Source of the DNA: BD2-11 clade cluster bacterium bin43
Lineage (GTDB): Bacteria > Gemmatimonadota > Gemmatimonadetes > Longimicrobiales > Gaopeijiaceae
DNA: 64,000 nt
NCBI GenBank assembly: GCA_002238605.1
Contig: MPMR01000021.1
Location: 1-64,000 of the forward strand
Reading direction: 5' to 3'
How positions within the stretch are numbered: the stretch's first letter is position 1; every line of letters begins with the position of its first letter. The position numbers and the translations under genes were made by a program. Shown here piece by piece: positions 14,020-19,515 of the stretch. Under the pieces are notes generated by a model. That model saw only the letters and a program-made list of their open reading frames with translations. It was not told the DNA's origin and made no database searches.

Positions 14020-14247
14020 TCATCGCTTTCTCTGCGCGCGCCGTTGCCGCGAGCGCGCCACGGCCTCCCCTACCAGCGGCCCGGCCAACCCGCCGATGGT
14101 GCCGCCCAGGACCATCATGAACCCCAGCGGCCCGAGGGTCGGGACCAGGCCCACCCCCGAGCTGATCGCCTGGTAGACGCTCGCCACCCCGAAGGCGAGC
14201 GCGCCCGTCAGGAACCCGATCAGGGTGCGTCGCACGATTCGGTTCAT
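14020..14247 (-). CDS. Small membrane protein (75 aa)
   Basis: Two hydrophobic segments (LIGFLTGALAFGVASVYQAI and LGPLGFMMVLGGTIGGLAGPLV) with a basic C-terminus (RSRQRRAQRKR), predicting both termini in the cytoplasm. Its ATG overlaps the stop codon of the cytochrome c gene (ATGA at 14244-14247), so translation is coupled. It may help anchor or assemble the neighbouring cytochrome/sulfite dehydrogenase system, but that is inferred from position only. Confidence 0.65.
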   Translation of the reverse strand: MNRIVRRTLIGFLTGALAFGVASVYQAISSGVGLVPTLGPLGFMMVLGGTIGGLAGPLVGEAVARSRQRRAQRKR

Positions 14248-14627
14248 CGACCCTCTCCCGTTGTGGTCTGTTCAAGGACTGCGCCGCCCTCGCCCGATCC
14301 GTCGGCCAGCCCGCGCGTCTCGAGCAGATAGCGCGCGGTCGCCTGGTACTCCGCATCGGTCATGGTTCCGGGGGCCTCGTAGGGCATCGCCAGCCGCAGG
14401 TACCGAGTCAGCGTCGCCTCGTCGGAGCGGGACGCCAGCGTCTCGGCGGTGATCGCGGCCCCGACCTGCCCCTCCACGTCGTGGCAGAAGGCGCACCGCT
14501 GGGCGTACACGAGGGCGCCGTCGACCTCCGGGGCATCGCTGCAGCCCACCAGCAGTGCGGCGGCGGAGAGGGCAGCGCCGGCCAGGACAGGTGGCACGAT
14601 CGTTCGCCGCCGAGCCGTCATCGCCAT
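14244..14627 (-). CDS. Monoheme cytochrome c lipoprotein (SorB-like partner)
   Basis: About 127 residues from ATG 14627. Lipobox LLVGC with Cys29, then one heme site CAFCH at residues 45-49, and a Met-containing AMPYEAPGTM region that can supply the sixth ligand. The size and fold are those of class I c-type cytochromes. It lies downstream of a molybdenum sulfite-oxidase-like gene (139-base gap) and would accept its electrons, as SorB does for SorA in bacterial sulfite dehydrogenases. Membrane anchored by lipid, facing the periplasm. Confidence 0.85.
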   Translation of the reverse strand: MAMTARRRTIVPPVLAGAALSAAALLVGCSDAPEVDGALVYAQRCAFCHDVEGQVGAAITAETLASRSDEATLTRYLRLAMPYEAPGTMTDAEYQATARYLLETRGLADGSGEGGAVLEQTTTGEGR

Positions 14628-14766
14628 CCGGCCATCACGTCCAGCCGGCCCATCGCCGCCGGCATCCACACTTCCCTGCCCGTCACCGGCAGCGGCACGC
14701 GATCCCCAACCAACCGGTCACCTCGACTCGGTGCGGTTGATCGCATCCGCCGCGCTCCCCCGAACC

Positions 14767-16020
14767 TCAACTCACCTCGACCGGGTGCGGAAGCGCCAGG
14801 TTGAGCAGATAGCCCTTCTGGTTCCAGACTCCTTCCATGGGCTGGGTGTTCCCGGCCGCGTCGGTCGCGCGGGTCCGCAGCGTGTAGGCGCCGGGCGCGG
14901 CCTGCCACTCGAACTCGAAGCGCATCCAGGCGTAGCGCAGGCGAGGTCCCATCAGGCGGGCGGGCGACCAGCTGGCCCCGTCGTCCGCGCTCCATTCCAC
15001 CGACTCGATGGGGCCGTCGTTCGAGTAGGCGAAGCCGCGGATCCGTTGCTGTCCGGCGGTTACGCTCGCCGGCCACGGGAGCGCCAGCGCGCTCTTCACG
15101 GGCAGCGTCGTGACCGGGGCTCCGTCGGCGGGCGCGTACCGCTCGGCCGGCCAGTCCGGGCCGATCAGGACGTACGAGCTGGTGTTGGCCCGCACCCAGA
15201 CCGGCTCGGTGGACACCTGGATCTCCCCCACCCACTTGATGCTGTTGCTCCCGGCCCAGCCGGGGACAACCCCGCGCACGGGGAATCCGTGGTCGGGGGG
15301 CAGCGGCTCGGCGTTCATCGACAGCGCGAGCAGGGTGTCCGGGTCCATCGCCTTGGCGACATCCATGGGCCGGCTGAAGCCTCCGTCGTCGAGGCCCACG
15401 AGGTTCACCGCCACCGCCTCCGGCCGCAGTCCGGCCGCCTCGAGCACCGCCGCCAGCGACGGCCCCGACCACGCCGCGCATCCGACCGCCCCCGTGCCCC
15501 ACTGCGTGCCCTCGGCCGCCTGTCCCGTCACGCGCGCGTAGAAGCCGCGCCAGTTGCCTGCGCACTCCAGGTACGCGACCACCGACTGGCTCGGCAGGGC
15601 GCGCAGGTCGTCGAGGCCGAGCTCGATGCTCCGTTCGATGCCGTCGCCCGTGACCCGCAGCCGGTAGTCCTCCGCCGCGATCGCCGGGGTCGGGGCGTGG
15701 TTGCGCACGAAGAAGAGGTCGTTGGGGGTGATCAGCCCGTCCAGCAGCTCCAGCCGGCTCTCGAGGTTGGTGGCGTGGCGGATGAAGGGATCGGGATCCT
15801 TGACCCATGCTGTATCGATTTCCGGATCGACGGCACGGGTCTCGGAGCGGCACCCCGGCAGTAGGGCCGATGCCCCGCCCGCGGCCAGGAGCGCCCCGAA
15901 CTGGCGGCGGGAGAGCGTTGCGTCCGCCAGAACGGACCACGGCTGCGCGCCCGCCTCCCCCCGGGTTGCCGCCGATTCACCTTTGATCGCGGCGTCCCGC
16001 AACCCCGGTCCAACGCTCAC
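14767..16020 (-). CDS. Molybdopterin sulfite oxidase/dehydrogenase family protein
   Basis: 417 residues. A twin-arginine signal (SRRQFGALLAAGG at 37-49) runs into a lipobox (LLPGC, Cys57), so the folded molybdoenzyme is exported by Tat and lipidated. The Mo-binding domain holds the invariant cysteine Cys153 in AYLECAGNWRG, plus HGFPVRGVVPGWAGSNSIKW, and the C-terminal part is the Mo-co dimerisation domain (YTLRTRATDAAGNTQP). Family reaction: oxidation of sulfite to sulfate with electrons passed to cytochrome c, fitting the cytochrome gene downstream. The GTG start at 16020 overlaps the stop of the upstream OsmC-like gene in GTGA, so translation is coupled. Other substrates (methionine sulfoxide, other S-oxides) are possible. 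Confidence 0.88.
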   Translation of the reverse strand: MSVGPGLRDAAIKGESAATRGEAGAQPWSVLADATLSRRQFGALLAAGGASALLPGCRSETRAVDPEIDTAWVKDPDPFIRHATNLESRLELLDGLITPNDLFFVRNHAPTPAIAAEDYRLRVTGDGIERSIELGLDDLRALPSQSVVAYLECAGNWRGFYARVTGQAAEGTQWGTGAVGCAAWSGPSLAAVLEAAGLRPEAVAVNLVGLDDGGFSRPMDVAKAMDPDTLLALSMNAEPLPPDHGFPVRGVVPGWAGSNSIKWVGEIQVSTEPVWVRANTSSYVLIGPDWPAERYAPADGAPVTTLPVKSALALPWPASVTAGQQRIRGFAYSNDGPIESVEWSADDGASWSPARLMGPRLRYAWMRFEFEWQAAPGAYTLRTRATDAAGNTQPMEGVWNQKGYLLNLALPHPVEVS

Positions 16021-16475
16021 GACACGATCTCGATTTCGAGTTCGGTGGAGAACTCGACGCACCCGACCATGGTTCGGTAGACCGGACAATACGGATGGTG
16101 AACATCGTGCGCCCGCCGCGCCTGCTCTTCCTTTCCGGCCTCCATTCTCAGGTGGTAGCGCACATGAACGGTGCGAATCACGAGCACCCCGTCCTCCTTG
16201 TCGATGCCTCCCTCGACTTCCGAGGTCAGGCGATCCTGCCCTGCCGGTATCCCGCGCGCCTCCAGCGCGCCGCCAAGGGTGCCCGTGAGTCAGCCGCCGG
16301 CCGCCGCCACGATGTAGTCGAGGGTGGTGGCCACCGGGGTCTTGGGCTCGACGCCGTAGTGGCTGGCGATCTCGCTGTGCACCCCGAACAGGACCGGGTC
16401 GCGGGTGGCGGGAAGATGCGCGTGGCGCAGCGGACCCTTCTTGCGCTCGATGCGAACTCTGGAGGTGTAGACCAC
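16017..16475 (-). CDS. OsmC-like selenoprotein (in-frame TGA read as selenocysteine)
   Basis: Read as one frame the product has 152 residues. Residue 62 is TGA (16290-16292) within ATTLDYIVAAAGG-U-LTGTLGGALEARGI, exactly where OsmC-family thiol peroxidases have their catalytic cysteine; the partner cysteine is Cys130 in HHPYCPVYRT. Homology continues uninterrupted after the TGA to a stop at 16017-16019 that overlaps the GTG of the sulfite dehydrogenase gene. A SECIS-like hairpin lies 25 bases after the TGA. GTG start at 16475 follows AGGAG. OsmC proteins reduce organic hydroperoxides in the cytoplasm; a selenol would be more reactive. The alternative is a simple nonsense mutation of a Cys codon, but the hairpin, the intact downstream frame and the translational coupling argue against it. 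Confidence 0.8.
16254..16270 (-). promoter_or_regulatory. Candidate SECIS hairpin of the OsmC-like selenoprotein
   Basis: On the minus strand a six-base-pair stem GCGCGC/GCGCGC closes a five-base loop TGGAG (16260-16264). The loop begins 25 bases after the TGA, within the 16-37 base range known for bacterial SECIS elements, and its second base is G, as expected for SelB binding. The stem also encodes protein (GALEARG), so part of its GC content is constrained by coding. The evidence is weaker than for the formate dehydrogenase hairpin. Confidence 0.55.
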
Positions 16476-16586: not shown

Positions 16587-17789
16587 CTACGCGGCGACCG
16601 CGCGCGGCCCGAGCTCGCCCATGGCGGCGTCGACCGCGGCGGCGGTGTCGACCGCGCATCCGCTCGCCCCCAGAGCATCCCCCACCGCGCGGATGGTACG
16701 CCTCAGCAGGTCCGGCCGGGTTGTTACATACCCCATGTGTCCCACCCGGAAGTACCGGTCGGCCATCGCGGGGTGGAGACCGGCCGCGACGATCACGCCC
16801 CGCTCGACGATGCGCCCCACCAGGGAGGCGTCGACCCCATCGGGATAGCGGACCGCGCTCAGGGTATTCGCGCAGTGGGCATCGCTGACGGGGACCATGC
16901 CGAGCCCCATGCGCGCCCAGGCCGCGCGCATCGCGCGACCCGTGCGGGCATGGCGCTCGATGCGGGCATCCACCCCCTCGATCCCGTCGAGCCGATCATC
17001 CAGGATCTCTCCCAGCGCCACCTCGGCCGCGACCACCAGGTTGGTGGCCGGGGTGGCGAAATAGCTCATCGCGCCCGCCTCATGGGTGTCCATGATGGGC
17101 AGCCAGACGTTCCAGTCGAGGTACAGGGGACAAGGGGTGCGGCGCTTCCGGCTCGCCTCCATCGCGCGCGGGCCGGCGACGAAGAGCGCGAGCCCGGGCG
17201 GGAGCCCCATCGCCTTCTGGGAGGCGGTGAAGTAGACGTCGGCGCCCCATTCGGACATCTCGAAGACCTCCGCTCCGGTGGCACAGACGCCATCGAAAAC
17301 GGACAACACCCCGCGCGAGCGCGCGAGCGCCGCCAGGCCGGCCGGATCGACGAGCACGCCCGTCGAGGTGTCGACATGGGTGGCGAACAGCGCCTTGGCC
17401 GCGCAGGCGTCCAGCGCCGCCTCCACCTCCTCCAGCCCCGGCCGCTCGCCCGGCGGACTGGCAACCGAATGGACCTTCACCCCCCGGTGTTCCAGCACCA
17501 GCCGCATGCGGTCGGCGAAGTAGCCCGTGTCCACGAGCAAGGCCTCGTCGCCCGGATCGAGCAGGTTCACCGCCGCCATGTCCATCGCCAGCGTGCCGCT
17601 GCCCGCGATCAGGAAGGGCTGGGCGCCCTCCCCGGCGCGCCACACCTCGCGCATCCGGCTCAGCGAGGTTCCGAGCGCCTTCACCGCGAAGGGCTGTCCG
17701 TGCCCGGGCGGCGGAATCGAAAAGGCGCGCAGGACTTCCGGGGAAACCTCGATGGGTCCGGGGATCATCAGCAGGGGACGTTCGCTCAT
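16587..17789 (-). CDS. Class V aminotransferase (serine-pyruvate/alanine-glyoxylate type)
   Basis: 400 residues from ATG 17789. The PLP-binding lysine is Lys192 in TASQKAMGLPPG; the cofactor-phosphate loop is GSGTLAMDMA and the cofactor Asp lies in VFDGVCATGAE. The opening MIPGPIEVSPEVL and the C-terminal FRVGHMGYVTTRPDLLRRTI are typical of the alanine-glyoxylate/serine-pyruvate aminotransferase family. It moves an amino group between alanine or serine and an oxo-acid in the cytoplasm. First gene of the minus-strand cluster, 111 bases upstream of the OsmC-like gene. Divergent from the Nramp-like gene. The amino donor and the link to sulfur metabolism are not shown by sequence. Confidence 0.85.
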   Translation of the reverse strand: MSERPLLMIPGPIEVSPEVLRAFSIPPPGHGQPFAVKALGTSLSRMREVWRAGEGAQPFLIAGSGTLAMDMAAVNLLDPGDEALLVDTGYFADRMRLVLEHRGVKVHSVASPPGERPGLEEVEAALDACAAKALFATHVDTSTGVLVDPAGLAALARSRGVLSVFDGVCATGAEVFEMSEWGADVYFTASQKAMGLPPGLALFVAGPRAMEASRKRRTPCPLYLDWNVWLPIMDTHEAGAMSYFATPATNLVVAAEVALGEILDDRLDGIEGVDARIERHARTGRAMRAAWARMGLGMVPVSDAHCANTLSAVRYPDGVDASLVGRIVERGVIVAAGLHPAMADRYFRVGHMGYVTTRPDLLRRTIRAVGDALGASGCAVDTAAAVDAAMGELGPRAVAA

Positions 17790-18033
17790 GGCACCTGGCA
17801 AACGGTTCGAGTCCGGAGGAGGCCGGGACAGACAATCTTGCCTCTCCCGGTGCCGAAGCTAACCAATCCGGCGGACCCCGGGAAAGCCGTTCGCGGTCCC
17901 GTATCGAGTGCGTACCGGCGCACCAGCCCGCGCCGTGATGCCGCCAACCTGCCATTCCCCCCGGGCTTTCTGTTCTTCCCCGCGCTGCCCATTATGCCCG
18001 GCGGACGCCCTCCATCATCCAGCGGAGAAACCC

Positions 18034-19515
18034 ATGGCCCAGAATCCCGGCCGCACCTCGGCGGAATCCTCCGAATTCGACCAGCTCGAGCTTCCGGACC
18101 GCTCGGTGCGCGGCCTGCTCCGCCACTTCGGGCCGGGGATCATCCTGATGATGACCGGGATCGGCACGAGCCACCTGGTCACGGCGCCCACCGCGGGGGG
18201 CCGGTTCGCGTACGCGCTGCTCTGGTGCCTTCCGGTGGCCTACATCTTCAAGTACTACGGCTTCGAGATGGCCTTCCGCTTCACCAACGCCACCGGCAAG
18301 AGCCTGATCGAGGCCTACGCCACGGCGCGCGGAAAGTGGCCGCTCTGGTACGTGCTGGTGACGACGCTGGTCCAGTGCGCGATCGGGCAGGCGGGGCGCC
18401 TGATCGCCGCGGCCGCGGTCGTGTACTACGTGGGTTCCGAGGTGCTCGGCTGGCCGGTCACCCTCACCGGGGCGGCGGTGGGGCTGGGAGTGGTGTCGGT
18501 GGGCATCCTGCTCATGGGACGCTACAAGGCCGTGGAAAACTCGGCCAAGATCCTCGCGGCCATCATGGTGGTGTCCACGCTGGCGGTCTATTTCTTCGAG
18601 CCCGCGCCCCTCTCCGAGATGGGCACCTTCTTCCTGGTTGAGATCCCCGACGGCTCCTGGCTGGTCATCGCCGCCTTCCTCGGCCTCCTCCCCACCGGCA
18701 TGGACGTCTCGCTCCAGGCCTCCGAGTGGGGGAAGGCCAAGAAGGCTGGAATGAGCAAGATCCGCGACCGCATGGAGGAGATCGGCATCGCGCGCTCCTT
18801 CAACCCCTTCTCGCCGCGCCTCCGCGACCTCACCGTCCACACCGACCGCCTGCCCGCGCACGCGCAGGAGTACTGCCGGCGCTGGTTCCAGATCGGCCTC
18901 TGGGATTTCCGCCTCGGGCACGTGGTGTCGTTCGTGATGGCCGCCGTTTTCATGCTGCTGGCGGCGGTGTGGCTCTACCCCAGCGCAGTGGAGGGCCAGG
19001 CGGTCATGGGCGAGATCGCGGGCATCTTCACCAACTCGGTGGGCCCGGGCCTGATGGGGCTGTTCATGTTCGGCGCCTTCGCGGCCACCTTCTCGACCGC
19101 CTTCAACTACTTCGACGGCTGGCCGCGCATCGTGGGCGCGTGCTGCCGCAACCTCTTCCGGGGCACGGCGCGCACGGCGGGCATCGACAGTAAGCACAAG
19201 AGCTGGTATTCGGAGTACAACCTGTACCGCGCCACCATGATCTACTCGCTGATCGGCTCGGTGGCCGTGATCGCCGGGCTGCCGCGGCCGGTCTTCCTGG
19301 TGCTGGTGGCCTCGGCGCTGGCGTTCTTCATCGCCCCGGTCATCTTCTTCCTCAACTTCTACTACTGCCTGGCCGTGATCCCGAAGGAAGACCGCGCCTT
19401 CTACCCGTCCACCTTCGCGCGCTGGTTCGGCTGGTTCAGCCTGATCGTCTTCACCGCCATGAGCGTGCTGCTGATCTTCGCGCGGGTGTTCGAGATTCCG
19501 CTCTTCGGGGCGTGA
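18034..19515 (+). CDS. Nramp-family-related transporter with atypical metal site
   Basis: 493 residues, about 11 transmembrane helices, ATG 18034 with GGAG upstream. The Nramp fold is recognisable (GPGIILMMTGIGTSHLVTAP in TM1 and AAFLGLLPTGMDVSLQ in TM6). The metal-coordinating motifs are changed, however: canonical DPGN in TM1 reads GIGTS, and the TM6 MPH/MPxN motif reads LPTGMD. Loss of the Asp and Asn ligands suggests it does not select Mn2+/Fe2+ in the standard way; related Nramp-like proteins transport Mg2+ or Al3+, or have unknown substrates. The insertion after TM6 (SKIRDRMEEIGIARSFNPFS) is hydrophilic and cytoplasmic. Followed closely by a small peptide gene and a symporter gene on the same strand. 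Confidence 0.8.
   Translation: MAQNPGRTSAESSEFDQLELPDRSVRGLLRHFGPGIILMMTGIGTSHLVTAPTAGGRFAYALLWCLPVAYIFKYYGFEMAFRFTNATGKSLIEAYATARGKWPLWYVLVTTLVQCAIGQAGRLIAAAAVVYYVGSEVLGWPVTLTGAAVGLGVVSVGILLMGRYKAVENSAKILAAIMVVSTLAVYFFEPAPLSEMGTFFLVEIPDGSWLVIAAFLGLLPTGMDVSLQASEWGKAKKAGMSKIRDRMEEIGIARSFNPFSPRLRDLTVHTDRLPAHAQEYCRRWFQIGLWDFRLGHVVSFVMAAVFMLLAAVWLYPSAVEGQAVMGEIAGIFTNSVGPGLMGLFMFGAFAATFSTAFNYFDGWPRIVGACCRNLFRGTARTAGIDSKHKSWYSEYNLYRATMIYSLIGSVAVIAGLPRPVFLVLVASALAFFIAPVIFFLNFYYCLAVIPKEDRAFYPSTFARWFGWFSLIVFTAMSVLLIFARVFEIPLFGA

What the first reader, a model, noticed from the sequence alone, without database searches (positions are those of the whole stretch)
16017..16475. OsmC-like selenoprotein hidden by an in-frame TGA
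Seen: the frame reads VAAAGG-TGA-LTGTLGGALEARGI and continues with intact homology, including the HHPYCPVYRT second cysteine, to a stop that overlaps the next start by GTGA. A 6-bp GC stem with loop TGGAG begins within the SECIS distance range. Known: OsmC proteins have a catalytic Cys at this position, and OsmC-like selenoproteins have been reported in environmental surveys. Inference: Sec replaces the peroxidatic Cys. A gene caller would report a 61-residue fragment.
Basis: partly seen in the sequence, partly recalled or inferred. Interest (0 to 1): 0.85.

Follow-up and report, generated by a model that had tools for sequence, protein, structure and literature searches.

The report
OsmC selenoprotein behind in-frame TGA
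This gene makes a small OsmC-type redox protein whose reactive cysteine is replaced by selenocysteine, encoded by a TGA codon that gene callers read as a stop; related genes with the same TGA occur in at least five bacterial phyla, and the group is not covered by the selenoprotein models checked here.

Summary
The genome, a Gemmatimonadota MAG, has tRNA-Sec, SelA, SelB and SelD. Homologues carry TGA at the same codon in 87 of 88 loci of a first set and 59 of 60 of a second; both exceptions are one Syntrophobacteraceae gene with TGT, nested among Sec rows. dN/dS is about 0.1 on both sides of the TGA. The hairpin alone is not significant (19% of synonymous recodings give one as long), but across relatives it is: compensatory changes, frozen third codon positions, loss in the Cys copy. 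Within the family the gene co-occurs with selA. A profile aligns Sec62 with the Cys of OsmC and Cys130 with its second Cys; the AlphaFold model (pLDDT 95) has the OsmC/Ohr fold. OsmC-like selenoproteins have been known since 2005. This clade is a distinct, almost Sec-only branch: far below the cut-off of NCBI's OsmC_like_Se model (17 bits against 95), motif U-x-x-G-T rather than the published UxxT. The genome also holds a second Sec-OsmC paralogue. Peroxidase activity is inferred, not shown.

The parts
16017..16475 (-). OsmC-like selenoprotein gene, 152 codons (GTG start, TGA = Sec62, TGA stop)
   Evidence: (PF02566 E=2.8e-13)
16290..16292 (-). Sec codon TGA (codon 62), at the OsmC active-site Cys
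16254..16270 (-). bacterial SECIS hairpin: stem GCGCGC/GCGCGC, loop TGGAG (16264-16260), 25 nt between TGA and loop
   Evidence: model criteria from PMC13188914
16086..16088 (-). Cys130 codon (HHPYCPVYRT), invariant second Cys, likely resolving residue
16484..16488 (-). AGGAG ribosome-binding site, 8 nt before the GTG start
   Evidence: read from the sequence
14767..16020 (-). downstream gene overlapping by GTGA: molybdopterin oxidoreductase of the sulfite-oxidase type (PF00174 + PF03404)
   Evidence: linked to osmC only within the genus
14244..14669 (-). cytochrome c (Cytochrome_CBB3), next in the same direction; with the Mo enzyme resembles a SorAB-like pair
   Evidence: SorAB likeness is inference
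16587..17801 (-). class-V aminotransferase upstream of osmC

Best explanation
A functional selenoprotein gene. SelB with Sec-tRNA reads UGA codon 62 as selenocysteine, directed by the hairpin 25 nt downstream, giving a 152-residue OsmC-fold protein. Sec62 sits in the central helix where OsmC/Ohr proteins carry their reactive Cys; Cys130 is placed to resolve it through a selenenyl-sulfide. Shown computationally: conserved Sec codon, purifying selection on both sides, covarying hairpin, complete Sec machinery, fold, and alignment of both redox residues. Inferred: that Sec is inserted in the cell (confidence about 0.96), and that the protein is a thiol-dependent (hydro)peroxide reductase or similar redox enzyme (about 0.65). 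It belongs to a nearly Sec-only branch of OsmC with two ancient paralogues in many Gemmatimonadota.
For: tRNA-Sec 74.8 bits (ARAGORN anticodon tca), SelB 316.8, SelA 522, SelD 300. TGA at codon 62 in 87/88 and 59/60 loci; 85 of 121 family genomes hold a homologue and every full-length match has exactly one TGA; all listed matches among 395 genomes of the phylum have one TGA. Co-occurrence with selA in the family: 80 both, 5 osmC only (all under 90% complete), 12 selA only, 24 neither; Fisher p 6e-12, inflated by kinship. Hairpin: 99.2% of cells paired, 24 cells changed on both sides against 6.8 in shuffles and 0-1 in slid controls; third-position entropy 0-0.8 bit in hairpin codons against about 1.3-1.9 in most codons around it; GCG>GTG at codon 8 matched by GCG>GCA at codon 11, with no one-sided cases at that pair. 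Hairpin absent in the Cys copy. dN/dS about 0.1 before and after TGA. Fold and residue match.
Against: No proteomic or biochemical evidence. Single-sequence hairpin not beyond chance. The genomes are mostly MAGs. In the family 12 genomes have selA without this gene, and 5 (incomplete) have the gene without selA. Peroxidase activity was not tested, and the Ohr Arg/Glu residues were not mapped.
Confidence: 0.93

Rival explanations
1. Sequencing error or pseudogene: the TGA is a true premature stop in a dead osmC.
For: Formally possible for any single MAG; callers would report two fragments.
Against: Same TGA in many independent assemblies and several phyla; dN/dS about 0.1 downstream of it; second cysteine invariant.
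Confidence: 0.01
2. TGA is reassigned (for example to Trp) in this organism, so no selenium is involved.
For: The frame is open under any code that reads TGA.
Against: The gene's own stop is TGA; the position aligns with Cys in OsmC and is TGT in the one non-TGA homologue; tRNA-Sec and SelA/B/D are present.
Confidence: 0.01
3. It belongs to the already catalogued OsmC-like selenoprotein family (Sargasso Sea, UxxT; or NCBIfam NF041052), so nothing about the family is new.
For: Same Pfam family (PF02566) and Sec at the OsmC active site; the published representative could not be fetched; NF041052 is among the models that most members hit weakly.
Against: Window member 17.1 bits and six others 12.7-29 bits against a cut-off of 95; best E among 28 members 7.2e-9; G, not T, at U+3 in all 28 aligned members.
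Confidence: 0.25
4. The protein is a selenoprotein but not a peroxide reductase; it acts in another thiol or persulfide chemistry, perhaps with the downstream sulfite-oxidase-like enzyme.
For: Overlap with a sulfite-oxidase-type gene and a cytochrome c conserved in the genus; sequence identity to solved OsmC/Ohr only 9-19%.
Against: The linkage is absent in every relative outside the genus that was examined; both redox residues of OsmC are kept.
Confidence: 0.3

Closest known systems
OsmC-like selenoprotein (Zhang 2005, PMC1088965; GOS 2008, PMC2398784; review PMC13188914)
   Same: OsmC domain with Sec as a predicted redox residue and a bacterial SECIS downstream
   Different: Published motif UxxT and 3 (Sargasso) or 5 (GOS) sequences; here U-x-x-G-T, many genomes, almost no Cys forms
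NCBIfam NF041052 OsmC_like_Se
   Same: OsmC-related (seleno)protein, aligned over the C-terminal two thirds
   Different: Window protein 17.1 bits, six others 12.7-29 bits, cut-off 95
OsmC / Ohr peroxiredoxins (1ukk, 2onf, 6ebg)
   Same: Fold (Foldseek prob 1.00, TM up to about 0.8) and the two aligned redox positions of OsmC
   Different: Sec in place of the first Cys; 9-19% identity; below the cut-offs of TIGR03561 and TIGR03562
YhfA-type OsmC (1ml8; own-genome Cys copy at C4:16550-16846)
   Same: Same Pfam family, Cys at the equivalent place
   Different: Cys protein; own-genome copy reads AACMGIDI with no in-frame TGA

Membership tests
OsmC-like protein (Pfam PF02566) | Score above the gathering cut-off | tested here: met
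   50.6 bits against 27.5; 28 of 28 aligned members match at E <= 0.001
OsmC/Ohr peroxidase | Two redox residues (first Cys in the central helix, second near the C-terminus) | tested here: met
   Sec62 and Cys130 align with both Cys of 1ukk; both invariant in A3
OsmC/Ohr peroxidase | Active-site Arg and Glu | not tested
   Local profile alignments start after the N-terminal third; R17, H33, Y40, D53 are conserved but were not mapped
OsmC/Ohr peroxidase | Reduction of organic hydroperoxides | not testable with these tools
   needs an assay
Bacterial selenoprotein | In-frame TGA at a position that is Cys in homologues, homology on both sides | tested here: met
Bacterial selenoprotein | SelA, SelB, SelD and tRNA-Sec in the genome | tested here: met
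Bacterial SECIS model (PMC13188914) | 4-16 bp stem, 3-9 nt loop, G in first two loop positions, 16-37 nt from UGA, MFE <= -7.5 | tested here: met
   6 bp, loop UGGAG, 25 nt, -11.2 kcal/mol for the hairpin alone
NCBIfam NF041052 OsmC_like_Se | Score above the curated cut-off (95 bits) | tested here: not met
   17.1 bits for the window protein; 12.7-29 for six others
OsmC-like selenoprotein, UxxT form | Thr at U+3 | tested here: not met
   G at U+3 and T at U+4 in all 28; reference sequence not available for direct comparison

The most novel reading that the evidence does not exclude
A distinct, almost exclusively Sec-containing branch of OsmC (U-x-x-G-T), with two ancient paralogues, in at least five bacterial phyla, uncatalogued and truncated in annotations: a selenoprotein family in which Sec is close to obligatory rather than an occasional substitute for Cys.
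Probability: 0.6. Interest if true: 0.6.

Novelty: new variant of a known kind. Interest (0 to 1): 0.5.

Why it matters
Standard gene calling cuts these genes in two, so a widespread redox protein would be missing from annotations. Most selenoprotein families have many Cys counterparts; here one Cys gene was found among the full-length matches seen, nested within Sec rows, in a genome that also keeps a Sec copy and selA. In genomes of the family without selA the gene is usually absent rather than replaced by a Cys form. That makes the branch a test case for why Sec is retained, and points to a role for selenium in Gemmatimonadota.

Tried and rejected
Rfam RF00031 in the genome: no hit, and its controls rang nowhere, so uninformative; Rfam on the locus: only a chance hit. 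Single-sequence folding and synonymous recoding: not significant, so the hairpin rests on comparison. Operon context as a clue to function: conserved within the genus only. The other ORF frames over the gene on the plus strand (up to 848 aa) were not pursued as genes. phmmer against PDB with the single protein found nothing; the profile did. Literature searches found no account of this branch in the open-access library; papers outside that library were not seen.

Full report
Observation. The feature lies on the minus strand. Reading 16475..16017 with TGA as Sec gives VVYTSRV...VAAAGG-U-LTGTLGGALEARGI...HHPYCPVYRT...EIVS followed by the stop TGA. The internal TGA is at 16292-16290. The stop overlaps the GTG of the next gene (16020). 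Plain ORF calling splits the gene into 61 and 56 aa pieces. The protein matches Pfam OsmC at 2.8e-13.

Sec machinery. The window is contig C55 of a 4.47-Mb genome, 97% complete. It holds tRNA-Sec (74.8 bits; ARAGORN anticodon tca), SelB (316.8 bits), SelA (522 bits) and SelD (300 bits), all over the curated cut-offs. Records titled Gemmatimonadetes hold most of the closest homologues; three of the near-identical ones bear Gammaproteobacteria titles and are probably mislabelled.

Conservation of the TGA. In the family, 85 of 121 genomes have a homologue; every full-length match has exactly one internal TGA. In 88 loci the codon is TGA in 87 and TGT in one, a Syntrophobacteraceae gene. In 60 further loci from the phyla of a Syntrophobacteraceae and an Acidimicrobiia genome it is TGA in 59, the exception being the same TGT gene. 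All matches listed among 395 genomes of the window's phylum have one TGA. These sets overlap in part. Within the genus dN/dS is about 0.1 both before and after the TGA, so the downstream part is translated and selected.

Co-occurrence. In the family, 80 genomes have both the gene and selA, 5 the gene only, 12 selA only, and 24 neither (Fisher p 6e-12, not corrected for kinship). The five exceptions are all under 90% complete. In genomes with neither, the search found no Cys version of this branch. Seven of ten genomes reached through other loci have selA, including the one with the Cys copy, which also keeps a TGA copy.

SECIS. In this sequence alone the hairpin is weak: fold z-score +0.31, and 19% of synonymous recodings with local codon usage give a stem at least as long in the allowed range. 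Across 54 sequences 99.2% of cells pair; 24 cells are changed on both sides against 6.8 in shuffles; slid controls fall to 16-71% paired (RNAalifold finds the same helix). In 54 rows of the window's clade the third positions of hairpin codons 7-12 have 0-0.8 bit of entropy against about 1.3-1.9 for most codons around them, and the 13 rows with GTG at codon 8 are matched by 13 with GCA at codon 11, with no one-sided cases at that pair: a non-synonymous change coupled to a synonymous one. The Cys copy has lost the hairpin. The loop UGGAG, 25 nt from UGA, fits the published bacterial model. Loci from the Syntrophobacteraceae phylum have a different hairpin (for example CTGGCC...GGCCAG), also within the model.

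Structure and mechanism. A profile of the clade finds solved OsmC proteins, aligning Sec62 with the Cys of 1ukk in AAHAGCFSMAL and Cys130 with its EGCPVSRAL Cys. The AlphaFold model (pLDDT 95.3) puts Sec62 inside a 23-residue helix, and Foldseek returns OsmC and Ohr structures. From established OsmC/Ohr chemistry (own knowledge) the likely cycle is attack of Sec62 on a peroxide, resolution by Cys130, and reduction by a thiol donor. That cycle is inferred.

Place among known families. OsmC-like selenoproteins were reported from the Sargasso Sea (3 sequences, UxxT; PMC1088965) and the GOS data (5; PMC2398784), and the 2026 review lists one entry, UxxT (PMC13188914). NCBIfam has NF041052, OsmC_like_Se. 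Members of the present clade fall far below its cut-off (17.1 bits for the window protein, 12.7-29 for six others, best E among 28 members 7.2e-9; cut-off 95 bits) and have G at U+3 and T at U+4 throughout. The published reference sequences could not be fetched, so separateness from them is likely but not proven. A quick tree gives the window's clade 100, the paralogue clade 100 and the Syntrophobacteraceae-phylum clade 99 SH-aLRT support; the Cys gene sits among Sec rows in the window's clade, so Cys is probably derived there.

Paralogues. The genome has a second Sec-OsmC (C40:43512-43967, about 36% identical) and one Cys OsmC of another type (C4:16550-16846). The two Sec clades occur together in many family genomes.

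Neighbourhood. Downstream in the window are a sulfite-oxidase-type molybdoenzyme and a cytochrome c, upstream a class-V aminotransferase. This order is kept in the genus but found in no more distant relative examined, so it says little about the family's function.

Noticed in passing
G000:C40:43512-43967 (L070): Second OsmC selenoprotein in the same genome, deeply diverged, with TGA at the same codon and the GCGCAC/GTGCGC version of the hairpin.
   Followed up: yes
window 14244-16020, minus strand: Sulfite-oxidase-type molybdoenzyme plus cytochrome c directly downstream of the selenoprotein gene, a SorAB-like arrangement conserved in the genus.
   Followed up: partly
L112-L138 and L169, most members: Relatives from the Syntrophobacteraceae phylum (L169 from the Acidimicrobiia phylum search) use a differently sequenced SECIS hairpin (for example CTGGCC...GGCCAG) at a shorter distance, and mostly motif UMMGT.
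   Followed up: partly
L064 / L111: The only Cys (TGT) member found; its genome also has a TGA copy and selA, a natural Sec-to-Cys pair.
   Followed up: partly
window 17908-19512, plus strand: Nramp-family transporter next to the locus.
   Followed up: no
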